Of a stretch of 12,521 bases of DNA, positions 1-12,521 are shown in pieces. The stretch spans positions 1 to 12,521 of the forward strand of contig CAIQGU010000205.1 of the NCBI GenBank assembly GCA_903871435.1, read 5' to 3'. The notes beneath the pieces are model-generated. The model was not told the DNA's origin and searched no databases. It saw nothing but the letters and a program-made list of their open reading frames with translations. This stretch comes from an uncultured Burkholderiales bacterium (GTDB lineage Bacteria > Pseudomonadota > Gammaproteobacteria > Burkholderiales > Burkholderiaceae_F). Numbering within the stretch: the stretch's first letter is position 1; every line of letters starts with the position of its first letter. The position numbers and the translations under genes are program-made.

Positions 1-317
1 CTGGAGCAGGAAGTGAAGATGAAGTTCACCAGAACCGCGCGGCCGTCGTCGAGTTCGCGAGGGAAGGCCACCTGGCAGCCATCGTCACGTACCAGCGCGA
101 TCGGAGGGATGTCGAGCACGACGCTGCGCTGCGTGACCGGCGACCTGCCGGATGGCGGCAGTACGGCAGACGGGCCGCCAGCACTGTGATGCGCCGCCGG
201 CTCAAGGTCGCTGGGACTGGGCTGAGGGCTCGCTGCCACGGCCGCAATGGCGTGCATCGTCAGCAGCGCGGCGGCGGCAATGCGCGATGGAAAATGGAAA
301 GTCAGTTCGCCTTGCAT
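1..317 (-). CDS. SCO1/SenC family copper/thiol protein, N-terminal part (cut by left window edge)
   Basis: The reading frame starts at an ATG (317-315) preceded by GGGAG at 323-327 with 5-nt spacing, and runs off the left edge after 105 complete codons. Residues 1-29 form a signal or anchor sequence (a short charged start, then an Ala/Leu-rich stretch ending AAVAAS). A Pro/Ser-rich linker follows, and then from about residue 66 the characteristic SCO beginning: a hydrophobic strand, 'LVRDDG', and 'VLVNFIFTSC' at residues 95-104. C104 matches the first cysteine of the SCO CxxxC copper/thiol motif; the second would be at 108, outside the window. SCO proteins are thioredoxin-fold, usually membrane-tethered periplasmic proteins that deliver copper to cytochrome oxidase CuA sites or reduce thiols. 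Here the gene sits 75 bp after a cytochrome gene in an apparent operon with a cupredoxin-bearing protein, so supplying copper or thiol reduction to this cluster is plausible (inference). The family call is firm; the exact role is not. Confidence 0.85.
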   Translation of the reverse strand, partial: MQGELTFHFPSRIAAAALLTMHAIAAVAASPQPSPSDLEPAAHHSAGGPSAVLPPSGRSPVTQRSVVLDIPPIALVRDDGCQVAFPRELDDGRAVLVNFIFTSCS

Positions 318-392
318 GAGTGCTCCCGTTTCACACGGTAATGATACGGACGGATGCGGACGATCAGCGGCAACCGGGCGTTGCTGCTTGCG

Positions 393-2120
393 CTAGGGAT
401 TGCGCCAGTCGCCGTCGGGTACCAGCCGATGCGGCGCGGCGAAATGCACCAGATAGCCGCCCTTGTTAGCAAAGCGCTGGCCAGGTGCCATGCTCAGCCG
501 CGGGTACATGCCGTTGAAGCGGCGATGCGACAGCATGACCTCAAGGCGCTCGACCAGGTACTCGGGCACGAAATTGACGTGCATTTCGCCGACCGTTTCC
601 GAAAGGATCTGACACGCGATATAGGTCTGAAGTTCCACGCGCTCGCTCGTCAGCGGAATGTGCTTGATCCGGAACCACCCCTGGGGCATCGTCATGGCCA
701 GCGCCCGTCGCTCCGGCAACTCGAGCGGGTAGCTCAATTCACTGACCTGCTGCCAGGCCGGCGGCAGCGGAATCTGCTCGAGTCCACCCAGCAGGCCGGA
801 TAACCAAACTGAAACACCCGGTGGGGGCTGCGCGGGCAGCGCGGCAACATCCTCGGGTGGCAGCCACAGGACGAGCGTGGTTCCGGACGCAACGCCGACC
901 GCCCGCGCCAGCTCTGTCGCACGGTCGCCCGTGCCCGGCAGCACGCGCATCTCGGCTTGCCAGCCCTGGGCAGCGAGCTGTTCACCGAGCTGGCGCGCCG
1001 CGGACTCGATGCCGGAGCCGGCGCGCACGACCTGCACCACGCGGCGAACGGCAGTGGTGGCCGGCGCGGCTGCGCCGCATTCCGCTTCAGACCCCGCGGA
1101 CACGCCCGACTGGATGCCATCGGCCATCAGTGATGCCTCGAGAAAAAGCCCACGCGAAAAATAAACAGGGAAGAAATCGGACTCCCGCACGACTGGTACA
1201 TCGACATTGGGAAAGAGACAGGGAAGGTGGCTGACCTCGCAGAAGTGGTGCACAGGCTCCCAGTCGGCGCCGCCTATGCCCGACAGGACCGCAAACACCG
1301 GTTCGCGGGCGCGATACGCCTGCAACTGCTCACCCCAGGTGGTGGCAGGCCCCGTCAGGGTCCAGACGTGCAGTACCCACTTGCGGGTGACGCGATACAG
1401 CACGCCATGGGTGTCGTGGGCCATGGGGCGGGCCGCGCCCGCGATGATGTGATTGCGGTCCTGGAAGAACTGACGCATCGTCGCCAGCATGCCGTCGCGC
1501 GCAACGGGATCGGCGTCGGGCGTGATGATCGTCGCGAAGTGCAGGGTGTCGTCGGTTACGCCGGGCGTTTCGCCGGTTCCGAGGTCGCGCAGGTAGGCGA
1601 TCAGAGCCGCCATGTCCTGGTCGCCAATGGCATACCGGGGCATCAGCACGGAGAGGGGCTGGCCGTTGCTGCTGACGCCGTCGCGCAGCGCCCGGGCGAG
1701 GCTCTCCACGGTGTAGGGGGAACGCGAACGCAAAACGCCACCTTGACCGCGGGGCGGCAGCGCTGAGGGCGCGTCATCGGCCTCGGGCAGGTTGGTGGAC
1801 CGCTGCCGGAACAGGTAGTCGCCGCTGATCGGCGGGATGACCGACTTGCCCTCGGCCGTCCCCAAGCCGCTGCGCCGATGACAGACCGCGCATGCCGCAT
1901 CCGGCCCGATGAGGGAGCGGCCAGCGTCGCGTGTGCCCTGCAGAGGCGTGCCGTCCGAGAGAAGTCCATCTCGATACAGTTGCTCGGGCGTCCACGGCGC
2001 GGCACTGGCTGGCAGCGCCACGAGCGCTGCCAGCAGCACCGCCAGCACGGCGGCGGGACCGCCGCGCCATAACGGGCGCGTGTAGCCCGGGCACCCTCGC
2101 TGGAAAGCGGCCAGGGCCAT
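393..2120 (-). CDS. Exported mono-heme cytochrome c fused to a type I periplasmic-binding-protein-like domain
   Basis: The 575-aa protein starts at an ATG (2120-2118) with GAGG overlapping the stop of the upstream gene. Residues 1-40 are a signal peptide ending 'LPASA', with likely cleavage before APW. A class-I-like cytochrome c domain spans about 45-185: heme motif CAVCH at 77-81 and a probable axial methionine M160 in 'LMPRY', followed by the usual C-terminal helix 'DMAALIAYLRDL'. Residues 190-575 (about 385 aa, the normal size of a LivK-type binding protein) look like a branched-chain amino-acid/ABC substrate-binding fold. A likely structural cysteine pair sits at C294/C301 in 'HFCEVSHLPC', a motif I associate with cytochrome-fused members of this group. 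The fusion suggests a periplasmic electron carrier that also binds a small ligand or partner. No transporter permease or ATPase lies nearby, so uptake is unlikely. The ligand is unknown. The domain calls are strong; the function is inference. Confidence 0.88.
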   Translation of the reverse strand: MALAAFQRGCPGYTRPLWRGGPAAVLAVLLAALVALPASAAPWTPEQLYRDGLLSDGTPLQGTRDAGRSLIGPDAACAVCHRRSGLGTAEGKSVIPPISGDYLFRQRSTNLPEADDAPSALPPRGQGGVLRSRSPYTVESLARALRDGVSSNGQPLSVLMPRYAIGDQDMAALIAYLRDLGTGETPGVTDDTLHFATIITPDADPVARDGMLATMRQFFQDRNHIIAGAARPMAHDTHGVLYRVTRKWVLHVWTLTGPATTWGEQLQAYRAREPVFAVLSGIGGADWEPVHHFCEVSHLPCLFPNVDVPVVRESDFFPVYFSRGLFLEASLMADGIQSGVSAGSEAECGAAAPATTAVRRVVQVVRAGSGIESAARQLGEQLAAQGWQAEMRVLPGTGDRATELARAVGVASGTTLVLWLPPEDVAALPAQPPPGVSVWLSGLLGGLEQIPLPPAWQQVSELSYPLELPERRALAMTMPQGWFRIKHIPLTSERVELQTYIACQILSETVGEMHVNFVPEYLVERLEVMLSHRRFNGMYPRLSMAPGQRFANKGGYLVHFAAPHRLVPDGDWRNP

Positions 2121-2129
2121 GCGCTAGGG

Positions 2130-2133
2130 CCTC
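2130..2133 (-). promoter_or_regulatory. Ribosome binding site overlapping the upstream stop codon
   Basis: The stop of the LolA-like gene (TGA, 2134-2132) overlaps GAGG (2133-2130), which lies 9 nt before the ATG of the cytochrome gene at 2120. This arrangement implies translational coupling of the two genes. Confidence 0.6.
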
Positions 2134-3058
2134 ACAGCTTGCTGAAGTGGTCCGGCGTGATCGCCGGGTTGGCCGTCGCGGTCTCGATGATGATGCGGTC
2201 GGTATCGCGGTAGCCCTCGACGCGCGTCTCCATCAGGAACGGCACCTTGACCCCATCGACCGTGCGGTAGTCCTTCAGCGCGGTGTACATAGGCTTGAGC
2301 TTGCCGTCGAAGCGCCGGGCGCCCTCGACCCGGACATCCAGGAAGGTCTCGGCGTCAACCCAGACGTGGCGCACATCACCGTTGGCCAGCAGCACCTTGA
2401 GCTTGTAGGCCGCCTTGCCGTCCACCGCATCGACGCCCTCGCTGCTGACATTGCTGCCCTTGGCCTGGGCGTCGAGCAGCCAGCCATCCAGGTCCGCCTG
2501 ATCGGCGGCCAGCTTCAGTTCTTCGGGGGTGAAAGGCTCGGCTTTGCTGTCGGGTCCCAGGTAGGGCCGCAGCTTCCAGCCGCTGTTGCCGTCGTAGACC
2601 TGTACCGCCGTCTTGTCGTTCACGTAGACCTCCAGGCGGGACTTGCGGCCGCGCGCCAGTTCCAGCTTGAAGGGGACCTGAATGACGGGCGCAGCATCGA
2701 CCTCGGCCGAGCGGACGATGCGCTCCTTGCGACGCTCCTTGGGGGTGGCATGCGGATTGCCGAAATTATTGTCCGGCAGGGGCTGCTTGCGCCCCGCATC
2801 CATCTTGCCGCTGTAAGCCAGCGCCTGGATCTTGCGCCACGCGTCGGCGCCGCCGCGCGCCTGGGCGTTGCGGCTCAGGATCTCGGCGACCGACAGGGAC
2901 GGCGCCGTCACGGCTGCTGCGACCGGCTTTGGGCTCGCGGCCGGCGCTGTCTGGGCGGCCGGTTGCGCGGCGGGGGTCGGTGCGTCGATGGCGCCGGCCT
3001 GCAGGGCCAGCAGCGCCAGCGTCACAGCCAAGGTGCCTTTGCGTTGGTTCGATGTCAT
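2132..3058 (-). CDS. Exported LolA/LolB-fold-like protein (outer-membrane lipoprotein-sorting-like)
   Basis: The 308-aa protein starts at an ATG (3058-3056) with AAGGGAG at 3068-3074. Residues 1-24 form a signal peptide (basic start, then 'LAVTLALLALQAGA'). An Ala/Pro/Gln-rich linker covers about 26-53. The folded domain covers about 54-308 and begins 'VAEILSRNAQARGG.DAWRKIQAL', a typical opening of the outer-membrane lipoprotein-sorting-like (LolA/LolB superfamily) proteins. It continues with alternating beta strands, a Trp-containing 'YDGNSGWKLRPYLG' strand, a 'HVWVDAETFLDVRVE' strand and a closing 'MTPDHF'-like segment (actual: ITPDHFSKL). There is no lipobox, so it is predicted to be soluble in the periplasm. 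It lies 42 bp after the preceding gene and 11 bp before the cytochrome gene, which supports one transcript. Such proteins bind hydrophobic ligands or lipidated partners; what this one carries is unknown. The fold assignment rests on pattern recognition, not alignment. Confidence 0.75.
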   Translation of the reverse strand: MTSNQRKGTLAVTLALLALQAGAIDAPTPAAQPAAQTAPAASPKPVAAAVTAPSLSVAEILSRNAQARGGADAWRKIQALAYSGKMDAGRKQPLPDNNFGNPHATPKERRKERIVRSAEVDAAPVIQVPFKLELARGRKSRLEVYVNDKTAVQVYDGNSGWKLRPYLGPDSKAEPFTPEELKLAADQADLDGWLLDAQAKGSNVSSEGVDAVDGKAAYKLKVLLANGDVRHVWVDAETFLDVRVEGARRFDGKLKPMYTALKDYRTVDGVKVPFLMETRVEGYRDTDRIIIETATANPAITPDHFSKL

Positions 3059-3100
3059 GTTCAGGTTCTCCCTTCGTTGCAGCGTCGCTGTCGGGTCGAT

Positions 3101-3688
3101 TTACTCGACCACGACACCATCCGCGCGGAATCGGCCGACCACGACGTCGACGTGGCCGCCCGGCTTGACCAGCCTGTTCGGATTTCCAAACAGGATGTAG
3201 TAAATCCGGCCCTCTTCCTGGCGCGGCGTCTGCCGCAGTTCGCCGATGTTCTCCATGGCCGGCACCGCCAGGCGTATGTCGGTCGCCTCGTCGATGACGA
3301 ATGCCTTCGAGCGCTTTTCGTTGAGGATGCCGGCCTTGTCGGCATCGAGCACGCGGTATTTGAAGGCGAGCATCCACCCGGACGACGTGCCATGCACGCC
3401 CAGGACTTCAACGCCCCAATTCTTGCGGAAGTACTCGTCGTAACGCTGGTGCCAGGCGGTGGTGTTGGCGAGCGTTGAGTGGGCTGCCGGTGGGGCCGAC
3501 GAAAGAGCACTATTCCGATCTGCCGTATTTGGCGTGCCAGGTTTTACTGCCGGGGAGAACGCGGTTGCTCCACCAACCGCCGGCGTTGCGGACGGGATGA
3601 CGATCGGTTCATCCGCACGACAGGCCAAGCCTGGCACCAGCAGGCACAGAACTACCACGGTCAAGCGCACCAGAACACCCCTGCTCAC
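3101..3688 (-). CDS. Small exported protein of unknown function, conserved C-terminal domain
   Basis: The 195-aa protein begins at a GTG (3688-3686), chosen because GGAGG at 3696-3700 sits 7 nt upstream and because it places a signal peptide ('VLVRLTVVVLCLLVPGLACRA') exactly at the N-terminus. A longer in-frame ATG at 3883 would be read through the terminator hairpin and is rejected. After a Pro/Ala/Ser-rich low-complexity stretch (about 25-78), a compact domain runs from about 79 to 195: 'AWHQRYDEYFRKNWGVEVLGV', a 'FKYRVLDADKA' strand, 'FVIDEATDIRLAVPAMENIG', 'IYYILFGNPNRLVKPGGHV' and a closing 'VDVVVGRFRADGVVVE'. I recall similar proteins beside cytochrome and multicopper-oxidase genes in metal-respiring or metal-oxidising bacteria, but know of no assigned function. 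The beta-rich tail suggests a beta-sandwich. It is the first gene after the terminator and so probably leads the downstream operon. Confidence 0.78.
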   Translation of the reverse strand: MSRGVLVRLTVVVLCLLVPGLACRADEPIVIPSATPAVGGATAFSPAVKPGTPNTADRNSALSSAPPAAHSTLANTTAWHQRYDEYFRKNWGVEVLGVHGTSSGWMLAFKYRVLDADKAGILNEKRSKAFVIDEATDIRLAVPAMENIGELRQTPRQEEGRIYYILFGNPNRLVKPGGHVDVVVGRFRADGVVVE

Positions 3689-3695
3689 TTCGGCA

Positions 3696-3700
3696 CCTCC
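3696..3700 (-). promoter_or_regulatory. Ribosome binding site fixing the GTG start at 3688
   Basis: GGAGG lies 7 nt before the GTG at 3688-3686. It decides this start over the in-frame ATG at 3883, and the frame from the GTG begins at once with a good signal peptide. Confidence 0.8.
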
Positions 3701-3718
3701 AAGGACAAACGACGAGCT

Positions 3719-3760
3719 ATTCGAAAGATTACGGCAGAAGTTGCAACAACTTGAGGTTCC
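3719..3760 (-). promoter_or_regulatory. Candidate promoter region with dyad for the 3688-to-1 operon
   Basis: Two overlapping possibilities exist on the minus strand after the terminator. One is sigma-70-like: TTGCAA (3746-3741), 16-bp spacer, TCGAAT (3724-3719), each 4 of 6 to consensus. The other is extracytoplasmic-function (sigma-E)-like: GGAACCT (3760-3754), 15-bp spacer, TCTGC (3738-3734). A dyad AAGTTG-TTG-CAACTT (3752-3738) fills the spacer of the second. Both would give a leader of about 25-40 nt before the ribosome binding site. Neither is proven; a promoter somewhere in 3700-3803 is expected because of the terminator upstream. Confidence 0.4.
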
Positions 3761-3803
3761 GCAGCGCTCATATTTTCGACTTGAGGCGCTGAAAGCGGCG
3801 CCG

Positions 3804-3834
3804 AAAAAAACGGCCCGGCTTGGATCCCGGGCCG
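3804..3834 (-). terminator. Rho-independent terminator of the giant gene
   Basis: On the minus strand an 8-bp, all-G/C perfect stem (3827-3834 with 3811-3818; CGGCCCGG and CCGGGCCG) with an 8-nt loop is followed immediately by seven T residues (3810-3804). This is a classical intrinsic terminator for transcripts coming from the giant gene, and it separates that gene from the four-gene run beginning at 3688. Confidence 0.85.
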
Positions 3835-3908
3835 CGCGCCTTGTCATCACGTACGTTCGGCTCTTGCGGCCGTCATCGCCCACGAGGCACCACCACCCGT
3901 CAGGCTAA

Positions 3909-3940
3909 GCGGACAGGATCTCCGATGGGATCCTGTCCGC
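3909..3940 (-). terminator. 12-bp perfect hairpin just downstream of the giant gene
   Basis: Arms 3909-3920 and 3929-3940 (GCGGACAGGATC and its exact complement) flank an 8-nt loop, starting 19 nt past the TGA of the giant gene. On the minus strand the tail is only TTAGCC, so it is a weak intrinsic terminator; it may act as an mRNA 3'-end stabiliser or as part of a tandem terminator with the next hairpin. Confidence 0.6.
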
Positions 3941-3959
3941 AGGGCCTTAACGGTGACGT

Positions 3960-6900
3960 TCAGTTGCCAGTGATTACCACGGTACCGCCGGTCGTCGACG
4001 CGCCCGTCACCGTGACAGACAGCGTCGCGTTAGCCGGCGGATTGCGGCCCGGCTGATAGGTGACAATCAAGGTGCAGGTATTCCCCGGCGTCAGCACGGT
4101 CGCCGGCGGAACGGTACCACCCGCCTGGCAAGTGCTGGTCAACGAGAGGCCCAAGGTCCCGCTGTTCCTACCCGACGTCTTCACCAGACTTAGGCCGGTT
4201 ATCGTAAATGGGCCATTACCGGTGTTCGAGACCGTTACAGTTTTGGTCCCCTGCCCAGTCAGCGTCAGCGAGTTGGTCGACAGGCCAAGCACGCCCTGCA
4301 CCGGTACGGTTCCGCCACTGGCGACCTCATCTGCGCCGATGTCGTATCCCTTGCCCTGGGGACGCGAATCGGCGTCGATGTCGTGGCCGAAGCTCGGATT
4401 GGCTCTCAACTGCGCCGCGGTCGGCGTGACACCCGCGTCGACGGCAGGGCTGGTCGTCCCGCTCAGGTGGTAGTTGCCGTTGGCATTTGCCGGGGCGGCC
4501 GGGTCATACAGCGACAGCGGACCGAACTGCACGTCCACATAGTTGCCCGACTCATCCAGCGTGGCGGCGGCATTGATGTTGAACGGCGGCTGGAACGGCG
4601 AACCGGGTTCGAACTGGACCTCCGGCGTGACGCGCCCGCCGTTGCAATAGCTCTTGACGAAGGCCGGGTCGGACGCGATGTTGCCCGTGTAGGCCGCACC
4701 GGTCGTGTACCCCAAGGCGCTGGAGAGGACCGTGTGGTCGAACACGAACTTGGTCGCGCCCGGCGTTGCCGACGCATCGCCGACGATGCCGATGTCCCAG
4801 TACCTGGCGTCCGTCGTGTCGCAGTAGCCTGTGGCCGAACCGGCCGGCACCGTCAGTTGCGCGCAGGAATTGCCGATAAGCGCGGTGGTCGCATCAGTGG
4901 CGGTGTTCGACGAGCACAGCACCGCCGTGCCATTGGTGGTCTTGGTCGTGAAGAACTGCGACCGGTTATGCCAGATGATGTTGTTCGACATGATCTTGGG
5001 CTGCGAGAAAGTCTGCTGGCGCATGCCTGCAGCGTTCAGCGCGCCGTTGAGCGCGGCGCTGGTCGGATCGCTGGCAACACCGGCCGGGTTCGGCCGGGCC
5101 GTCGAAGGACCGGTGGCGCGCCCGTTGACGGTCGAATTCATCAGGTTGCCGGCAATGCCGAGTCCGTCGTTGTTCACGATGGTGTTGCCGAACATGTTCA
5201 CGTAGACCGCGTCCGCGAGCGAAACGCCGGCGCCGGCCCAGCCTGCGACGTTGTTGGCAATGATGTTGTTGCTCAACGTCACCGTCCAGGTCTGATCCTG
5301 GCCCAGGTCGGTGCCGTTGATCGAGGAGAGGCGAACGCCACCGCCGCTGCCCGAGCGAACCGAGTTGCCCTGGATCAGGTTGGAGTCGACGACGATATTG
5401 CCCGCGCCCGTGCTGGCCACCGTCGCGCTGCCCGGCTCTCCTTCGATGGCAAGACCGCCACCGAAGTTCGGACCGGTTTGCTGGTAGGCCTCGTTGAAGA
5501 GGATCGAGTTGTGGGCCACAACGCCCGGCGTGCTGTTGCCGACGATACCCACACCGGCGCCGTCACCGGCACTGAAGTTGCCGCAGATCCAGTTATTGGT
5601 CACGGAGAAATTATCCGCGCCCGCATCGATGGACAAGCCGCTGCCGACGCCGCTGGTAGCAACGAGAGAACCGGGGGCTGCATTGGCCTCGTCGGTGCCG
5701 TTGTTGATGATGCTGTTGTTGTGGATCGACACGTTGACGTTGTAGGCAAGGTATCCGCCCAGGTCCTGCGCCTGACGGTTGGGCGTCTGCGCTTCCAGGT
5801 AGGGCTGGCCGATGCGGACGCCACCAGCGTACGGGCCGCTATTGCCATAGACGCGGTTGTTCGACACCTGCAGGCGATGGGCCCAGCCGTTGACATAGAT
5901 GCCGCCACCGGCGTCAGAACCCGTCACGCCGATACCATCGATACGCGACGGGTAGCAGGCGAAGTCCCTGAAGTTACGCGAGGCCGCAGTCGCCGCGATG
6001 GGCTGGTCGGGATTGGCCGGCGGCGTGTAGCCGGGGATGCTCGGCAGCGTGCCGGCCGTCGGGTAGAAGCCATAGGGCGTTGCCGGTACCAGGTTGGCGA
6101 CCGGGTTGGGTGCCGTGGCGGAACCCAGGGGCTGACAGCGCGGCGCAAGCGGATTGGCCTGCACGTTTGCCGCAAGCACCGTGATGCCGGCGCCTTCCTC
6201 GGTGGACAGCGCCGAGGGCTCAAGCAGGACGATGCCGCCGGTGATTTCCTGGCCGGGCAGCGGATCGATCTGCGCAGGCGCAATGGCTCCACCCACCGTC
6301 AGCTGGTTGCCTTCGGGATCGAGGCCAAACATCAGGTTGATGCGGGCACGCCAGTCGGCGAGCTTGCTGTTCGGGTACTTGGTCGCCTGGATGGTGACCG
6401 CAGCTGCGCCAACGCCTTGCAAACGTAGCGGCTTCCACAGCACGTCCAGTTCCGGATACGTGCCAGCATCGATGATGATCAGGTCGCCGGGCAGCGTGTT
6501 GACGTTGTCGATCGCATCCTGGATGGGGTGCGGCAGGCCGTAACCCTGGCCCGTGCCGATGCCCGTTCCCGGAGCAGGTGCGGCAACGTACCACGGTGCG
6601 CGATAGCCGGCCTTCTTGGAGTTGTCGATTGTCACCGTCACGGTGTCAATGCTGCTCACGCCCGTGGATGTCGTGATTACCAGCTGGTAGTCGCCAGTGG
6701 CCAGACTCGCAGGCACGGTGGCGACCACGCTGGCATCCGTCCAACCCGTGCTCGATACCGTCAGTACGGTGGATACACCGGCCTTGTCTTTCAGCGTCAC
6801 CTTGCCAGCCGTAGCGCCGAAGCCGTAGTGGCGGGTAATACGGTTGGTTGCGTACGTGGTACCCGGTAGGGTCGTCGGACCCGCATACGCCGGGTTGAGC

Positions 6901-9900
6901 ACGCTTGTGTCACCCAGCGCGGTGATCGTCAGGGCAGGCGCAGCCGCGCTCAGGTCGACATAAGGTCCGACACCGGTGGTGGGCAGCACGGCGCCCGGCG
7001 GCAGGGAAGCCCGCGTTGCCGTCGGCTTCCAGTTGCCATCGACACGCAGCACCGCTGGCGTCAGCGTCGGGTACTGGCAATCCACCGGCGCGTAGTGCGA
7101 GGCAAACGCGGATACCGGCAGGACCGGCGTGTCCAGGTACGTCGTCACGCCCGGCAGGATCGGCCAGTTGTAGCAGAAGTCGCTGTACTGCGAGTTGTAG
7201 TACGGGTCCGTCACGAACTTGCCCGGGTGAGCCGGATCGGCCACGGGACCGGGATCGTTCATGCAATACGTCAGCATGTTCGGTGCATAGCCCGAAGGAT
7301 TGGGCACATTGGCTTCCCAGGTCGACACGTTCAGGAAGTCGAAGGTACCCCACTTGTCGGTATAGGCGCGCAGGATTTCCGTGCCGTTGAAATCTCGCAC
7401 CGAGATCGGCGCATTGGGCAGGGCGAACTTCTCGCCGAAGCTCGGGCTGTACGGATCGAACTCGGCCGCAGCGTCGTTGAGCATCAGGCCGCTCACGTGG
7501 CCGGCGATGGGCGCGGGCGTCCACAGGGAGAAGTCGGCGTTCGAGGCCATCTGGTCGACCACGGTCACCAGCTTGCGATCGCACAGGTTGCGAACCTGGC
7601 CGGCAAACGGCGCCGACTGTGCGGCTTCGGGAACAACGGTCAGGAAGTCCGGCACGACGTGGGGAACGCCCACGCACGGCGGGAACAGCTGGATGTAGCC
7701 CTGCGGATTGCTGTTATTGAGCGTTGCTTGGTCCGGCAGGATGAAGATATTGGTCAGGTTGCCGAACTGCTGCGGGGCCGCCGAGATCCATGCGTCGCCG
7801 ATGAGGATGTTCTTGTCCTCTTCCTTGATGACCTCGAAGCCGGGCGGCGTCACCACTTCGACCACGTACTGGCCGGGCGGCAGTATGGCAACCGGCGCGG
7901 CCGAGCCGTCCGGGTTGACCATCGGCTTGCCCGTTGCGTTGTTGAGCAGGGTCGATGGATGGGCGGCCGTGTAGGCAGCCGAGGGGAAAGCGTAATAGCC
8001 GTCATAGACCGCCGGCTGGACCTGGTTGAACGCGTGCTGGCCGTCATAGCACTTGAACTGGTTGGTATTGCCGCCCAGCGTGAAGTTTATGAACGGATCG
8101 GTCTTGCCCGCCACGTACGACGGCGGGTTGGCCGACGCCGGGGCATTGCCGGGGCACGACATATTGGGCACGCCATTGGTCGTGCCGTTGGCCCAGTCAT
8201 CCCAGCTCGACGTCGTGGTGGTGTCGACCAGGGTGTCGCTGGTCGTGCCGTCGGGATTGGTGACGCGCCGGTAAAGGTTGACCGTCACTCGCGGAATACC
8301 CGGCTCCGAAAGGTTCTGCACCTTCAAGCGCGGGTCATCGAAGGCGCGTACCGACGCGAAATACACGAGGCCGCTGATACCGCCGTTCTCGCCCGCCACG
8401 AAGGGCTGCTTGCCCCATTCCAGGAATTCGGTCTGGTTGATGAAGCCCTGCATGCCCTCGGTGATGAAACCCGGGGGATCGATGCGCTCCGTCTTGCCGG
8501 CCGTGCTGTATTTGGCTCCCGGGATGCGGTTGGCCGCCGGCACCGGGAAGGCCTCAGTGCTGTTGATCACGCCGAGGGTGCTGAAATACTCGGTGGGCGC
8601 AAGCGCGCTCGCGCCACCCAATGCAGTCTGGTCGGATATGCCGCCCGCGTCATAGATGATGTGGACGCCGGTGTTCTTGTAGCGCGTCTGGTCGTTCTCG
8701 AGCACGTACCAGTTGAACAGCGGGAACAGCTCGTTGTGGAAAGCGTTGCCCGAGTTGTCCGTGATCAGCTTGTTGGAGAACGTGCCGTCCCGGAAGCGCA
8801 CATTGGCCACCAGGTTGGTCAGGCCCGGCTCGCCGGGGTCACGCACGCCATTGCCGTTGAGGTCGAGGTAGATCGTTTCCTGGATGCGCGTGAACCAGTT
8901 GAAGACCGGCGTATCGCCACTGGAGACGGTCAACTTGCCGGTTGCGTCAGGAACAACGACCAGCTTCTGCGCCTTGATCTGGTCGAGCCACTGGTCCCAG
9001 ATGAAGAGTTCGTAGGTGTCCGGCGGCACATTGCTCAGCGTGAAGTTGCCGTCGCCGTCGCAGGCCGCGAATGCCACGGTCGGGCCGGTGCCGGACTGCG
9101 AGTTCAGCGTCGCATAGCAATTGGTGTAATTGAGGGCGGCGCGGGCGCAACTGGCGTCCTTGTTCAAGACTCCGTTGGCATCGGCGCAGCTGTCGTTGAG
9201 CTTGGCTTGCGGCGGGCGGTCCATGTGCAGGTTGGTGGCCCGTCCGGTCACCGTGTAGAACTTGGTGTTTCGGGGCTGGGCCTTCGCGGTGGCCGCATTG
9301 GTAGCCGCAATGTGCGCCGGGTTCATGAAGCCGATAGTGGAGTGGAAGCCCGGCGGGCCGAACTCCTGCCAGTACGCAGGCTCGCCGGCGTGCACGAAGC
9401 TGTCGTTGTTGGGCGTGCCCTCGAGGGTCGTCACCTGGATCCACTGCTCGCCCGCGGCCTCGCGATAGGCAGCCGGGTGCGCCTGGACGTCGATCCGGCC
9501 GGGAATCACGTTCTTGACCAGCGCCATGCCGGTGTAAGGCGATACGTCCTGGCCACGCTTGTCGAGCACGGGCAGACAGGTATAGATCACGCCGATCGGG
9601 GCTTGCGCGCCGTTCGGGGTGGTCGGGCACAGGTTCGAGTACTTGTTCCCGTCGGTGCCCGTGCCGGCGATATTGGCCAGGGCATTGGTCAGGGGCTGGT
9701 TGAACAGGTCATAGGTGATCTGGCCGGCCTGGTCACCCGAGCTGCCGCGGGTGTCGTAGATCACGATTTCGAAGCCACCCAGGCCCGGCTCGTTGTCGTC
9801 GACGTCGCCGTTGACAGGGTTCTTGTCCTCGAACACGAAGAAGGACATCTGGCCCGGGGGCAGCGGATTCTGCGGCACGAGCACGGTCACCGCAGGCCAC

Positions 9901-12521
9901 GAGGTGGCGCCCGCAACTGTGGTCGGGACGATAGGCGCGGCACCCATCGTATGACCCGTGAGCTTGGTACCCGTCGTCACGCCCGGTGTGTCGTCGCCGG
10001 GCAGTACGGATATGAAGTATCGCTTGGTCGGATCGAGCGCGACGTCCGCCGGGAAGGAGCGCGGCTGGGTGGCGCCAACGGTGACGCCGCCGATGCTCTG
10101 GTTGTCGTTGCAGCTGCGCACGCCCGTGCATCCAGCCGCGATCACCGGCATATAGCTGCGATGGAAATTGGTCGCAAGGCTCTGGCTGCTGGTGGCCGTG
10201 GCTACGCCGCTGCCGATGGCCGTGGTGGGAACGGTCGCGTCCGGCGTTTCATACAGGGTGTACGTGAAGCTGGTGCCAGTAACGCTATTGATCCGGAAAG
10301 TGCCGTTGAAGACGTCGGTCGTGGAACCCGAGATCTGCACATAGGTGCCGGGCACGAAACCGGCGAAGTTGGCGGGCAGGGTTCCAACGCTGACCGTCAC
10401 CTGCGGGCTCACCAGGCCGGGCTGTAGCGTCTTCGGCGTATAGGCGATGCTGGTGAGCGGCACATTGAATGCAGGCGGCACGAATCCGGCATTGCCCGGG
10501 TCGTGCAGGAAGGTCTGGTCTTCTTCGATCACCCAGCGGTAGTCAGTGCCGGGGTTGCTGCCGTCGACCGAGTCCTTCAGGGAAACCGCGACGCCGCTGC
10601 CTTGCGGGAAAACCAGCTGGGCGGTCGACGAGGCTGACTTGCCCTGGGCATCGACGGCGAAATAGGTGAACTTGTAGCCGCCAGGAGCCGTGGCGGTGGC
10701 AGTGAAGCCACCGTCCGCGAGCAGCTGGACGGTACAGGCGCCGGTTCCCGCGGGCACGGCTGTGGTGCTGCCGGCGGGTGTAAAGCCGGCGGCGCTGCAC
10801 GTGGGCGCCGAGAAGGGGACAACCTGTCCGACCCCCGGTATGGCAGAAGGTGGCGCGTTGTTAGCGCTGGCCTGCAGGGTGTACGTGCTTGAGACTCCAG
10901 CCAGCACACCCGGGTGCGGCACACGCAGCAGGGAGGCAACGCGGCTGGTGAAGGTACGCGTGGCGGGAGCAGCGACCGTCTCGCTGGCAGTGGTGGCAGC
11001 CAGATTCACGGTGGCGCACACACTGCTGGTGGTGACGTTGCCGCAGTAGGTGAAGCTGTCGTTGGCGATCGCCACACCACCTTTGGGCGTATACACGAAG
11101 GTGCCGTTGGGCTGCATCGCGATCGAGCCATTAGCCGTGGTCAGGGTCGTGGCAACCACCGTGGTGCTGCCCCCAAGCACCGCGCCGGTCACGCCGACGT
11201 CATTGGCCAGCACGTTACCGGTAAAGGTCGTGGCATTGGCCGGAACGTTGAACGTATCCGGGTTGGCGGCAATCGCGATGGCGGAGGGGATGATTCCCGT
11301 GCCCGCCACCTTGAGCGCGCCAAGGGATGTGGATGTCGCGGTGGTACCGGGCGGTGCAATGGCCAGGAAGCCCTGCAAGCCGGAGAACGACTTGCCGCCG
11401 CCCGAGAGCGACAGTTCGCGGTCGAGCACGGCGTAGGCCGTGTCGGTGAACGTACCGGAGGTCGCGCCGGCGGCGGGGGTGATGGCCACGTCAACCGTCT
11501 TGCCGGCGGGCAGCAGGATGGCGCTCTGCACCTTGCCGCTGACGAGCGGACTCGTGGACGTCGCGGTTTTTGTCAGGGCGATGGCCACGTCGGGCTGGAG
11601 ATTGCCGTCCTCGGCGATCAGCGTGCTGTTGACGCCAACGATGGTGGGGATGTGAGTCTTCAGACCGGCATTGAGGAAGCGCACCACCACACGGCCCGTG
11701 GGCGTTGTCGCGCCCGGAGTGTCGCTGATGATGGCGGCTGACAGCGCCGGGTTGGTGCGGCTGTAGCTCTGCCCATTGAGCAGGAAGTACGTGGGCGCGT
11801 AATTGACGGCCGGCGGGTAGCACGCGATCGTCGTGCAGTCGGGCTGGCCCGCATTTGGCGTGTACGTCGGATTGCCGATGGGGTTGTTGCCGGACACATT
11901 GGGCGCGACGCGCTGCTCAAGCGCGGCGAAGTTGGCCGCGTTGGCGAGCGTCGGCGCTTGCGCGGCTGCCATGGCGAGGGCGGCGGTATCGACGGCGGTG
12001 TTTTGCAGCACATCGACTTCGCTCAGCAGGAAGGTGGCATCTGCGTCGTAATTGAGCGGAACGGGTGCGGTTGCAGGGCCCGTGCTGGCTGCGTACGCGC
12101 TGTTGGGTCCGCCGGGGACCGGCGCGACACCGGCATTACCCGTGACGATCAGGACGCCATAAAGGCCCATGGGCACTTGCAGCGACGGCCGGCTGCCCGA
12201 CTCATAGAGGTACGTGCCCGGCTTGAGGTTCAGCCAGGTGTAGGTCTGCGTTCCCGCCGCGGTCACCGTTCCACCGATGCCATCGGCTTCCGGCGCGAAC
12301 GAGCGGGCACGCGGGCCTTGTCCCGGTGGCGTGAAGTTGGCCGCCGCCTGACCGACGAAAGTCGTCAGCCCGGCGCCCGAGTGCGTGGGACTGGCCACAT
12401 AGTTCGGCGAGCCAAGTCCGCCCCCGATCTGGCCGAGGACGGTGATCGACGTCGGTGTCGGGAGCTGGTTGGTGAGGTTGATCGTCAACGGTTCACCGGT
12501 CGGCACGATAATGGTCGGCCC
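3960..12521 (-). CDS. Giant secreted multidomain protein: cupredoxin-like N-terminus, Ig and Sdr-like domains, IPT, beta-helix, choice-of-anchor-D-like end (partial)
   Basis: The frame is open from the right edge to a TGA at 3962-3960, at least 2,853 codons without a stop. The first visible residues, 'GPTIIVPTGEPLTINLTN', are the first strand of a cupredoxin domain, so perhaps 50-100 residues including the signal peptide lie outside. The GTG at 12506 is not the real start. Domains in order (numbered from that GTG): cupredoxin A 1-122, cupredoxin B 154-390, Ig/cadherin-like 413-503 and 522-635, an inserted beta module 695-772, Sdr-like region 886-1790, IPT/TIG 1858-1962, beta-helix with choice-of-anchor-Q-like end 1985-2730, choice-of-anchor-D-like 2735-2848. 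There are no transmembrane segments, no LPXTG, no PEP-CTERM and no RTX nonapeptides. It is expected to act outside the cell or on its surface, beside periplasmic cytochrome and SCO proteins. It resembles large proteins that accompany MofA/MnxG-type multicopper oxidases; an oxidase activity of its own is doubtful because the HxH copper motifs are missing here. Confidence 0.9.
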   Translation of the reverse strand, partial: GPTIIVPTGEPLTINLTNQLPTPTSITVLGQIGGGLGSPNYVASPTHSGAGLTTFVGQAAANFTPPGQGPRARSFAPEADGIGGTVTAAGTQTYTWLNLKPGTYLYESGSRPSLQVPMGLYGVLIVTGNAGVAPVPGGPNSAYAASTGPATAPVPLNYDADATFLLSEVDVLQNTAVDTAALAMAAAQAPTLANAANFAALEQRVAPNVSGNNPIGNPTYTPNAGQPDCTTIACYPPAVNYAPTYFLLNGQSYSRTNPALSAAIISDTPGATTPTGRVVVRFLNAGLKTHIPTIVGVNSTLIAEDGNLQPDVAIALTKTATSTSPLVSGKVQSAILLPAGKTVDVAITPAAGATSGTFTDTAYAVLDRELSLSGGGKSFSGLQGFLAIAPPGTTATSTSLGALKVAGTGIIPSAIAIAANPDTFNVPANATTFTGNVLANDVGVTGAVLGGSTTVVATTLTTANGSIAMQPNGTFVYTPKGGVAIANDSFTYCGNVTTSSVCATVNLAATTASETVAAPATRTFTSRVASLLRVPHPGVLAGVSSTYTLQASANNAPPSAIPGVGQVVPFSAPTCSAAGFTPAGSTTAVPAGTGACTVQLLADGGFTATATAPGGYKFTYFAVDAQGKSASSTAQLVFPQGSGVAVSLKDSVDGSNPGTDYRWVIEEDQTFLHDPGNAGFVPPAFNVPLTSIAYTPKTLQPGLVSPQVTVSVGTLPANFAGFVPGTYVQISGSTTDVFNGTFRINSVTGTSFTYTLYETPDATVPTTAIGSGVATATSSQSLATNFHRSYMPVIAAGCTGVRSCNDNQSIGGVTVGATQPRSFPADVALDPTKRYFISVLPGDDTPGVTTGTKLTGHTMGAAPIVPTTVAGATSWPAVTVLVPQNPLPPGQMSFFVFEDKNPVNGDVDDNEPGLGGFEIVIYDTRGSSGDQAGQITYDLFNQPLTNALANIAGTGTDGNKYSNLCPTTPNGAQAPIGVIYTCLPVLDKRGQDVSPYTGMALVKNVIPGRIDVQAHPAAYREAAGEQWIQVTTLEGTPNNDSFVHAGEPAYWQEFGPPGFHSTIGFMNPAHIAATNAATAKAQPRNTKFYTVTGRATNLHMDRPPQAKLNDSCADANGVLNKDASCARAALNYTNCYATLNSQSGTGPTVAFAACDGDGNFTLSNVPPDTYELFIWDQWLDQIKAQKLVVVPDATGKLTVSSGDTPVFNWFTRIQETIYLDLNGNGVRDPGEPGLTNLVANVRFRDGTFSNKLITDNSGNAFHNELFPLFNWYVLENDQTRYKNTGVHIIYDAGGISDQTALGGASALAPTEYFSTLGVINSTEAFPVPAANRIPGAKYSTAGKTERIDPPGFITEGMQGFINQTEFLEWGKQPFVAGENGGISGLVYFASVRAFDDPRLKVQNLSEPGIPRVTVNLYRRVTNPDGTTSDTLVDTTTTSSWDDWANGTTNGVPNMSCPGNAPASANPPSYVAGKTDPFINFTLGGNTNQFKCYDGQHAFNQVQPAVYDGYYAFPSAAYTAAHPSTLLNNATGKPMVNPDGSAAPVAILPPGQYVVEVVTPPGFEVIKEEDKNILIGDAWISAAPQQFGNLTNIFILPDQATLNNSNPQGYIQLFPPCVGVPHVVPDFLTVVPEAAQSAPFAGQVRNLCDRKLVTVVDQMASNADFSLWTPAPIAGHVSGLMLNDAAAEFDPYSPSFGEKFALPNAPISVRDFNGTEILRAYTDKWGTFDFLNVSTWEANVPNPSGYAPNMLTYCMNDPGPVADPAHPGKFVTDPYYNSQYSDFCYNWPILPGVTTYLDTPVLPVSAFASHYAPVDCQYPTLTPAVLRVDGNWKPTATRASLPPGAVLPTTGVGPYVDLSAAAPALTITALGDTSVLNPAYAGPTTLPGTTYATNRITRHYGFGATAGKVTLKDKAGVSTVLTVSSTGWTDASVVATVPASLATGDYQLVITTSTGVSSIDTVTVTIDNSKKAGYRAPWYVAAPAPGTGIGTGQGYGLPHPIQDAIDNVNTLPGDLIIIDAGTYPELDVLWKPLRLQGVGAAAVTIQATKYPNSKLADWRARINLMFGLDPEGNQLTVGGAIAPAQIDPLPGQEITGGIVLLEPSALSTEEGAGITVLAANVQANPLAPRCQPLGSATAPNPVANLVPATPYGFYPTAGTLPSIPGYTPPANPDQPIAATAASRNFRDFACYPSRIDGIGVTGSDAGGGIYVNGWAHRLQVSNNRVYGNSGPYAGGVRIGQPYLEAQTPNRQAQDLGGYLAYNVNVSIHNNSIINNGTDEANAAPGSLVATSGVGSGLSIDAGADNFSVTNNWICGNFSAGDGAGVGIVGNSTPGVVAHNSILFNEAYQQTGPNFGGGLAIEGEPGSATVASTGAGNIVVDSNLIQGNSVRSGSGGGVRLSSINGTDLGQDQTWTVTLSNNIIANNVAGWAGAGVSLADAVYVNMFGNTIVNNDGLGIAGNLMNSTVNGRATGPSTARPNPAGVASDPTSAALNGALNAAGMRQQTFSQPKIMSNNIIWHNRSQFFTTKTTNGTAVLCSSNTATDATTALIGNSCAQLTVPAGSATGYCDTTDARYWDIGIVGDASATPGATKFVFDHTVLSSALGYTTGAAYTGNIASDPAFVKSYCNGGRVTPEVQFEPGSPFQPPFNINAAATLDESGNYVDVQFGPLSLYDPAAPANANGNYHLSGTTSPAVDAGVTPTAAQLRANPSFGHDIDADSRPQGKGYDIGADEVASGGTVPVQGVLGLSTNSLTLTGQGTKTVTVSNTGNGPFTITGLSLVKTSGRNSGTLGLSLTSTCQAGGTVPPATVLTPGNTCTLIVTYQPGRNPPANATLSVTVTGASTTGGTVVITGN
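3963..4304 (-). other. C-terminal choice-of-anchor-D-like beta-sandwich of giant protein
   Basis: Residues 2735-2848 read 'LGLSTNSLTLTGQGTKTVTVSNTGNGPFTITGL' in its parts, followed by 'TCQAGGTVPPATVLTPGNTC' and 'TLIVTYQPG', ending 'VVITGN'. This is the Spd-2/Hydin (choice-of-anchor D) pattern: a T-V-x-V-x-N-x-G strand, a cysteine pair and an x-F/Y-x-P strand. The protein stops directly after the domain, so this copy may itself be the surface-retention or secretion module. Confidence 0.7.
4317..6554 (-). other. Right-handed parallel beta-helix of giant protein, with choice-of-anchor-Q-like end
   Basis: Residues 1985-2730 open with 'PIQDAIDNVNTLPGDLIIID', the usual cap of pectate-lyase-like helices. 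Coils then recur around an asparagine-rich turn: 'VSNNRVYGNSG', 'IHNNSIINNG', 'VTNNWICGN', 'VAHNSILFNEA', 'VDSNLIQGNSV', 'LSNNIIANNVAG', 'MFGNTIVNNDG' and 'MSNNIIWHNRS', at least eight turns. The end, 'SPAVDAGV' followed by 'DIDADSRPQGKGYDIGADE', is the choice-of-anchor-Q pattern. There are no obvious catalytic lyase residues, so a structural or carbohydrate-binding role is more likely. Confidence 0.82.
6621..6935 (-). other. IPT/TIG-like immunoglobulin domain of giant protein
   Basis: Residues 1858-1962 contain 'RITRHYGFGATAGKVTLKD', 'GWTDASVVATVPASLATGDYQLVIT' and a closing 'SSIDTVTVTI'. The W-(S/T)-D-x-x-(I/V)-x-x-x-(V/I)-P core is the hallmark of IPT/TIG domains. It links the Sdr-like stalk to the beta-helix. 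Confidence 0.75.
7137..9851 (-). other. Sdr-like (SdrD B-like/CNA B-like) beta-sandwich region with calcium-loop motifs
   Basis: The region covers residues 886-1790 and holds several units of the 'prealbumin-like' type. The clearest are 'FFVFEDKNPVNGDVDDNEPG' (889-908), 'GDGNFTLSNVPPDTYELFIWD' in pieces around 1151-1171, 'LDLNGNGVRDPGEPG' (1214-1228), 'GISGLVYFASVRAFDDP' (1376-1392) and 'LPPGQYVVEVVTPPGFEV' (1542-1559). The D1215/N1217/N1219/D1223/E1226 pattern resembles an EF-hand-like calcium loop, as in SdrD and dockerin. Such domains give rigid, calcium-stabilised stalks in exported proteins. Confidence 0.72.
10191..10424 (-). other. Phage-tail/adhesin-like beta module inserted between Ig and Sdr-like parts
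   Basis: Residues 695-772 read 'VTVSVGTL', 'GFVPGTYVQISGS', 'DVFNGTFRINSV', 'GTSFTYTLYE' and 'GSGVATAT'. This matches a widespread short beta module seen in phage tail and surface repeat proteins (pattern: G-x-x-V-x-I-S-G, then Y/F-N-G-T/N-F, then T-S/F-T-Y). It lies between 'YRWVIEEDQTF' and 'SLATNFHRSYMPV', two segments that I recall as adjacent in related proteins, hence the call as an insertion. Confidence 0.5.
10602..11270 (-). other. Ig-like/cadherin-like domains of giant protein
   Basis: The first unit (residues 413-503) contains 'NVLANDVG', 'GSIAMQPNGTFVYTP' and 'NDSFTY', the signature of the bacterial Ig/cadherin-like domain repeated in many adhesins. The second (about 522-635) is a further beta-sandwich ending 'YKFTYFAVDAQGKSASST'. 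Both are probably spacers or adhesive modules. The exact family of the second is uncertain. Confidence 0.65.
11337..12521 (-). other. Degenerate cupredoxin domain pair (part of giant protein)
   Basis: Two cupredoxin-like units are visible. The first has the opening strand 'GPTIIVPTGEPLTINLTN' and the closing 'LKPGTYLYESGSRPSLQVPMGLYGVLIV'. In canonical multicopper oxidases this closing segment carries the HxH ligands (GTxWYHSH type); here the place is taken by YESGS, so a copper site is lost. The second unit has 'YFLLNGQSYS', 'VVVRFLNAGLKTHIPTIV', 'LIAEDGN', 'LPAGKTVDVAI' and a closing 'VLDRELSLSGGG', typical of domain 2 of laccase-like folds. No Cys-His type 1 copper motif appears. Confidence 0.8.

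What the first reader, a model, noticed from the sequence alone, without database searches (positions are those of the whole stretch)
1..12521. Candidate surface redox/metal system: giant cupredoxin stalk protein plus cytochrome-binding-protein fusion, SCO, LolA-like and an unknown exported protein
Five consecutive same-strand genes all appear to encode exported proteins, and three carry redox or copper-linked folds. Clusters of this type are, from established knowledge, found near MofA/MnxG-like multicopper oxidases implicated in Mn(II) oxidation or in extracellular electron transfer. The combination with a beta-helix/Sdr-like stalk and a cytochrome fused to a ligand-binding domain is not a textbook system. 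The joint function is inference.
Basis: partly seen in the sequence, partly recalled or inferred. Interest (0 to 1): 0.75.

Follow-up and report, generated by a model that had tools for sequence, protein, structure and literature searches.

The report
Copper oxidase split between two proteins
The window is most of a known but untested surface gene cluster of metal-exposed bacteria, and its copper enzyme appears to be divided: one protein keeps one half of the active site, its neighbour keeps the other half, and the giant stalk protein in the window is a third, copper-less copy that probably holds them at the cell surface.

Summary
The five same-strand genes are real, and their neighbourhood recurs in Burkholderiales, other Pseudomonadota, Acidobacteriota and Myxococcota. 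The cluster type is already in print (Slit_1812-1818 of Sideroxydans lithotrophicus, higher on magnetite; PMC12016527, PMC5566968), so the cluster itself is not new. The window (a whole 12,521-bp contig) stops inside the giant gene. In relatives two cupredoxin genes, A and B, lie just upstream; in the window's own genome they sit on contig C382, placed by elimination. The new point is the copper ligands. A keeps the domain-1 half of a two-domain multicopper oxidase (HxxHxHG 74 of 76, HCHx5Hx4M 75 of 76, the rest contig-edge fragments) and has lost the domain-2 half. B keeps the domain-2 half (HxxHxH 76 of 76, HxH[ND]E 75 of 76) and has lost the domain-1 half. The giant's N-terminus is a third paralogue with neither. 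In known two-domain enzymes the copper cluster forms between domain 1 of one subunit and domain 2 of the next. So A+B should make one complete site, with the giant as scaffold and stalk. Assembly and substrate are inferred, not shown.

The parts
3960..12521 (-). Giant protein G, 2853 aa in the window, 5' end cut by the contig end; a near-identical full-length copy, P0001, has 2939 aa
   Evidence: P0001 100% as rounded, a few residues differ; G found in 78 of 80 loci
11397..12521 (-). N-terminal pseudo-multicopper-oxidase part of G (two cupredoxin-like domains, copper ligands lost); boundary approximate
   Evidence: PF07732 22.7 bits against cut-off 21, residues 1-30; paralogue of B at 24-31% identity; profile matches copper nitrite reductases and, weakly, 3g5w; HxxHxH, HCH, HxH[ND]E in 0 of 78
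11046..11273 (-). Big_9 (bacterial Ig-like) domain of G
   Evidence: Pfam 26.6 bits against 23.6
8733..8885 (-). SdrD_B-like domain of the stalk
   Evidence: Pfam 27.1 bits, below cut-off 29.7
5523..5912 (-). Right-handed beta-helix part of the stalk
   Evidence: PF13229 29 bits against 25.9
4323..4481 (-). Choice-of-anchor Q-like region
   Evidence: NF041518 20.8 bits, below cut-off 25
3101..3883 (-). Unknown exported protein; many relatives are about 155-180 aa, so the real start is probably internal
   Evidence: ORF; no family above cut-off; downstream of G in 71 of 72 loci
2132..3058 (-). LolA-like exported protein, 308 aa
   Evidence: PF17131 weak here, above cut-off in the L010 orthologue; 57 of 63 loci
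393..2120 (-). mofC-like exported protein: cytochrome c domain plus a second domain described in the literature as periplasmic-binding
   Evidence: PF00034 25.3 bits against 21.3; downstream of G in 44 of 62 loci; homologues also beside complete single-chain MCOs
1878..1892 (-). Single CxxCH haem-binding motif of the cytochrome domain
   Evidence: sequence read
3..317 (-). SCO1/SenC-like copper chaperone, first 105 aa, cut by the contig end
   Evidence: BLAST to SCO proteins of relatives; the L010 orthologue has SCO1-SenC 73.1 bits; 23 of 53 loci on the same strand downstream

Best explanation
The window holds the downstream five genes of a seven-gene surface copper-oxidase cluster (A, B, G, unknown, LolA-like, then cytochrome and SCO). 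A, B and the N-terminus of G are three paralogous two-domain cupredoxin proteins. A carries the type 1 copper ligands and four trinuclear-cluster histidines in domain 1. B carries the other four histidines in domain 2. Each has lost the reciprocal half, and G has lost both. I propose that they assemble as a heteromer, most simply an A:B:G pseudo-trimer of six cupredoxin domains, with one working type 1/trinuclear site at the A(domain 1)/B(domain 2) interface. G replaces the third subunit and tethers the enzyme to its adhesive beta-helix stalk. SCO loads copper; the cytochrome, where present, is a periplasmic electron partner or assembly factor. Electrons from an outside donor, most likely solid or complexed Fe(II), perhaps Mn(II), pass to O2 or, through the cytochrome, into the cell. 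Shown: gene order, ligand complementarity, fold family. Inferred: assembly, copper loading, substrate, electron route.
Against: No complex was modelled or measured. Model A is only moderate (pLDDT 64, pTM 0.69). Foldseek itself ranks ascorbate oxidase, a three-domain MCO, first for both models. No A-B fusion appeared among the 120 listed hits of a joined query. One locus (L071) has A cut after domain 1 and no B, perhaps a decayed copy or assembly fault. A keeps one conserved His at the second-domain site (74 of 75) and B has a further conserved HxH, PHMHPG in L010 (His 75 and 74 of 76), so other metal sites are possible. SCO is found in 23 of 53 and the cytochrome in 44 of 62 loci; all 13 Acidobacteriota loci with at least 5000 bp downstream lack the cytochrome, so it is not essential everywhere. 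A, B and G distances correlate strongly (Pearson 0.94-0.96 over 71 loci), but co-inheritance alone would give that.
Confidence: 0.6

Rival explanations
1. A and B are two separate copper proteins: A a surface electron carrier with type 1 copper, B a metal-binding (not oxidase) protein; they work in series, with no shared active site.
For: A has a complete type 1 motif on its own; B has an extra conserved HxH. No fusion was listed.
Against: A keeps all four trinuclear-type histidines (HxH and HCH) invariant, which a plain type 1 carrier would not need; B keeps exactly the missing four; the two are side by side in 17 of 17 genomic copies.
Confidence: 0.2
2. The A-B complex exists but is not a metal oxidase: it oxidises phenolics, lignin fragments or humics at the surface of soil bacteria, and the magnetite response is indirect. 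(Not exclusive of the split-site reading; it concerns the substrate.)
For: Many hosts are Paraburkholderia, Burkholderia and Acidobacteriota (their soil habit is recalled); a two-domain MCO oxidised phenolic lignin moieties (PMC13151041, abstract and passages).
Against: Higher expression on magnetite in S. lithotrophicus (PMC12016527) and the giant adhesin-like stalk fit a solid substrate; mofC-like and SCO partners are shared with a MofA-like MCO.
Confidence: 0.3
3. MofA/MnxG-type Mn(II) oxidase cluster.
For: mofC-like cytochrome and SCO beside an MCO module, as in mofABC and ompB clusters (PMC5566968).
Against: A MofA/OmpB-like single chain found here (L114; Cu-oxidase_2 and fibronectin III) carries all four motifs in one protein and got no BLAST hit at 1e-4 from A, B or G queries; He et al. 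[quoted passage not shown]
Confidence: 0.08

Closest known systems
Slit_1812-1818 cluster of Sideroxydans lithotrophicus ES-1 (PMC12016527; PMC5566968)
   Same: Same kind of gene set: cytochrome, SCO, small hypotheticals, a large cupredoxin protein without MCO motifs and with adhesin/lyase-like domains, and two MCO-motif proteins
   Different: The passages that I read say the two MCO proteins have canonical motifs and do not mention that each could hold only half of the ligands. Supplementary Fig. S4 was not seen; Slit_1817/1818 were not fetched, the Sideroxydans sp. locus L018 stands in
Type C two-domain multicopper oxidases (PDB 3g5w, 2zwn; that these are type C is recalled, their domain-1 HCH motif is seen)
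   Same: Two cupredoxin domains, type 1 copper motif in domain 1, same HCHx5H spacing, top VIA-align and profile match for A and B
   Different: There one chain has both halves and, as recalled, forms homotrimers; here the halves are on different chains and a third chain has none
Ceruloplasmin and other six-domain MCOs
   Different: Those are single chains
MofA/OmpB clusters
   Same: mofC-like cytochrome and SCO partner genes
   Different: The MCO is one chain with all four motifs (L114)

Membership tests
Slit_1812-1818-type cupredoxin cluster | Giant cupredoxin protein lacking MCO motifs plus two MCO-motif genes, SCO, cytochrome, small hypotheticals | tested here: met
   Window genes plus A and B on C382; same order in relatives. 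The joining of C382 to the window is by elimination, no overlap was found
Type C two-domain MCO | Two cupredoxin domains per chain | tested here: met
   A and B; G by profile only, weak
Type C two-domain MCO | Type 1 copper ligands in domain 1 | tested here: met
   A only, 75 of 76 with one contig-edge fragment; B and G lack them
Type C two-domain MCO | Both halves of the trinuclear ligand set in one chain | tested here: not met
   Neither A, B nor G has both; the pair A+B has
Type C two-domain MCO | Trimeric assembly with inter-subunit trinuclear site | not testable with these tools
   No complex prediction on offer; inferred from homology
MofA/OmpB-type MCO | Single long chain with all four copper motifs | tested here: not met
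   Giant N-termini have none of the tested motifs; compare L114
MofA/OmpB-type cluster | mofC-like cytochrome and SCO copper chaperone nearby | tested here: met
   Window 393-2120 and 3-317
Six-domain ceruloplasmin-like MCO | Six cupredoxin domains around one trinuclear site | not testable with these tools
   Proposed for A:B:G only; domain count fits, assembly unknown

The most novel reading that the evidence does not exclude
A, B and the N-terminal part of the giant form an obligate heterotrimeric multicopper oxidase: a ceruloplasmin-like six-domain ring made from three gene products by reciprocal loss of ligands, with a single active site shared between A and B and a catalytically dead third subunit fused to a giant surface stalk that presents the enzyme to minerals.
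Probability: 0.45. Interest if true: 0.8.

Novelty: new variant of a known kind. Interest (0 to 1): 0.64.

Why it matters
If right, an active site of the blue copper oxidases is divided between two genes, a pattern for which two full-text searches here returned no paper. It would change how these proteins must be tested: expressing one gene at a time would give inactive protein. It also makes a testable candidate for how bacteria oxidise solid iron minerals from outside the cell, an open question to which the published magnetite proteome points.

Tried and rejected
MofA/MnxG as the upstream enzyme: rejected, since A and B are matched best by two-domain oxidases in profile and VIA-align searches (for B the single-sequence search put a laccase, 4f7k, first) and the MofA-like chain of L114 is a different, complete protein. 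Giant as a working copper protein: rejected on ligands. Natural A-B fusion as proof of the complex: none among the 120 hits listed for a joined query (candidates were capped at 7999 and the list at 120, so distant fusions are not excluded). The window giant against PDB sequences: no match at E <= 0.1. The cytochrome protein against PDB sequences: best E 0.049. Cytochrome search in a phylum sample: 2 of 299 genomes, one of them the own. The unknown protein in 150 relatives: 4 of 150, own genome included and none of the 6 other genomes of the genus, so the cluster is patchy. The CH34 megaplasmid record holds A but PLSDB lists no gene there. Of the four papers listed only PMC13151041 was opened.

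Counting notes. One search kept the best 80 of 199 places. In one search locus L054 counts as a miss for LolA-like, cytochrome and SCO although its contig ends soon after G; in L019 and L031 the giant is broken by a frame change, so distances there are shifted. Order A-B-G: of 74 loci with all three, 73 by frame start; in the 74th, L029, A is a contig-edge fragment. Loci without A: L019, L052, L054, L084 (L019 still shows A's last residues). Without B: L052, L054, L071, L084 (L084 shows B's last residues). L071 is the real exception. L029, L074, L071 and L082 were dropped before the distance correlation (71 loci). A3 used 43 of the 47 and A4 47 of the 49 references selected.

Full report
WHAT IS IN THE WINDOW. 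The window is the whole of contig C205 of an incomplete genome (65% complete, 532 contigs). Five minus-strand genes fill it: a giant protein cut at its start by the contig end, an unknown exported protein, a LolA-like protein, a cytochrome c with a second domain, and the first 105 residues of a SCO-like protein. A near-identical full-length giant is P0001, 2939 residues. The stalk has Ig-like, SdrD_B-like and beta-helix parts.

THE CLUSTER IS KNOWN. Full-text passages show the same kind of set in Sideroxydans lithotrophicus ES-1 as Slit_1812-1818: predicted cytochrome, SCO1/SenC, small hypotheticals, a large cupredoxin protein without MCO motifs and with adhesin- and polysaccharide-lyase-like domains (Slit_1816), and two proteins with MCO motifs (PMC12016527, passages). 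It was more highly expressed in late magnetite than in Fe(II)-citrate cultures. PMC5566968 (section 13 read) had listed three tandem MCO genes with mofC-like and chaperone genes there. A locus-tag search found only PMC12016527.

CONSERVATION. An alignment of 14 giants was used to fetch 79 loci, the best 80 of 199 places. On the same strand downstream, the unknown protein is found in 71 of 72 loci with at least 700 bp, LolA-like in 57 of 63 with at least 2500 bp, the cytochrome in 44 of 62 with at least 5000 bp (48 counting upstream copies), SCO in 23 of 53 with at least 7000 bp (25 anywhere). The 18 loci without a downstream cytochrome are 4 with an upstream copy, 13 Acidobacteriota by record title, and L054, whose contig ends too early.

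WHAT LIES UPSTREAM. In relatives two genes lie just upstream on the same strand. Counting the own-genome piece L089, A is found in 76 of 80, B in 76 of 80 and G in 78 of 80; the order is A-B-G in 73 of 74 loci with all three, the 74th being a contig-edge fragment. The gaps are contig ends except L071. In the window's own genome there are two A-B sets: on C346, where a second giant follows in the same contig, and on C382, which ends inside B. By elimination C382 is the missing upstream neighbour of the window; no overlap was found.

THEY TRAVEL TOGETHER. In 11 whole genomes, chosen because they hold loci, A and B each occur 17 times, every A beside a B, five pairs in one genome. In a sample of 399 genomes of the window's order, own genome included, 6 have A and 7 have B at E <= 1e-40; the seventh (G323) has a more distant A beside its B.

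THE THIRD SUBUNIT. G's N-terminus is a distant paralogue of B (24-31% identity) and matches copper nitrite reductases and, weakly, 3g5w by profile. In a divergent form, seen in 4 genomes of that sample, the giant is two genes: stalk sequence lies in a frame before A, and a free copper-less G (frames of 644-707 residues) follows B. G is thus kept even without the stalk, as expected for a structural third subunit. The window's giant is then a fusion of that subunit with the stalk.

SWAPPED FOR A COMPLETE ENZYME. Homologues of the window's cytochrome in the family of G323 (7 of 100 genomes, 10 places) were read with their surroundings: 9 regions, G323 itself as L090. L111 holds G, unknown, LolA-like, SCO and cytochrome; L112 the same plus B (probably the contig of L076). 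Of the other seven, three (L114, L117, L118) hold a single-chain MCO with all four motif types and L116 one with three of four by my pattern; L113, L115 and L119 were not counted as such (L119 has a long chain with several HxH motifs on the other strand, and its cytochrome match is weak). In L118 the cytochrome is on the opposite strand. L114's chain (2132-aa frame) has Cu-oxidase_2 and fibronectin III above cut-off, as described for OmpB. The accessory pair cytochrome + SCO thus serves either one complete oxidase or the A/B/G trio, which fits the trio being one oxidase.

MECHANISM. Most likely an A:B(:G) complex at the cell surface takes electrons at A's type 1 copper and reduces O2 at the A/B cluster, with the stalk holding it to mineral or matrix. 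SCO supplies copper. The cytochrome's role is open: electron acceptor, or help in assembly. Substrate: solid or complexed Fe(II) is favoured by the magnetite data; Mn(II) and phenolics are not excluded.

LIMITS. No complex was predicted or measured. Two full-text searches for a heteromeric MCO returned no paper, but most subscription journals are outside that library. Supplementary files of PMC12016527 were not seen. PMC13386937 and PMC11412304 were seen in passages only and add only the distribution and expression of mofA and other known MCO genes in Leptothrix and its relatives.

Noticed in passing
L088 (G000:C346), 17201-17203: The own genome's second giant has an in-frame stop between frames of 1961 and 932 aa: a broken copy or an assembly error.
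   Followed up: no
L071, 789-1923: A ends after domain 1 and the giant follows at once, with no B: decayed cluster or misassembly.
   Followed up: partly
L090-L093: Divergent form with stalk sequence in a separate frame before A; in L091-L093 a frame of 786-875 aa lies between the unknown protein and SCO.
   Followed up: partly
G733 (genome of L020, Acidobacteria bacterium AB60): Five A-B pairs in one genome.
   Followed up: no
L113, frame from 1284, 1978 aa: Long chain whose N-terminus by eye resembles that of the MofA-like protein of L114, without the copper motifs, beside cytochrome and SCO: perhaps another copper-less MCO.
   Followed up: no
G000:C327 (L101) and G000:C415 (L099): Two further cytochrome-fusion paralogues (41% and 39% identical) in the own genome; on C327 two SCO genes flank it.
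   Followed up: partly
L100 (NC_007974.2, Cupriavidus metallidurans CH34 megaplasmid): A is present at 61.6% identity in this metal-resistant strain.
   Followed up: no
B proteins, e.g. L010:9995-11449: A further conserved HxH (PHMHPG in L010, His in 75 and 74 of 76) just before the copper motif, role unknown.
   Followed up: no
L010 7743-8204, L013 7388-7825, L018 7854-8282: Short genes that read like response-regulator receivers lie just upstream of A in these loci; by eye, no family search was run.
   Followed up: no
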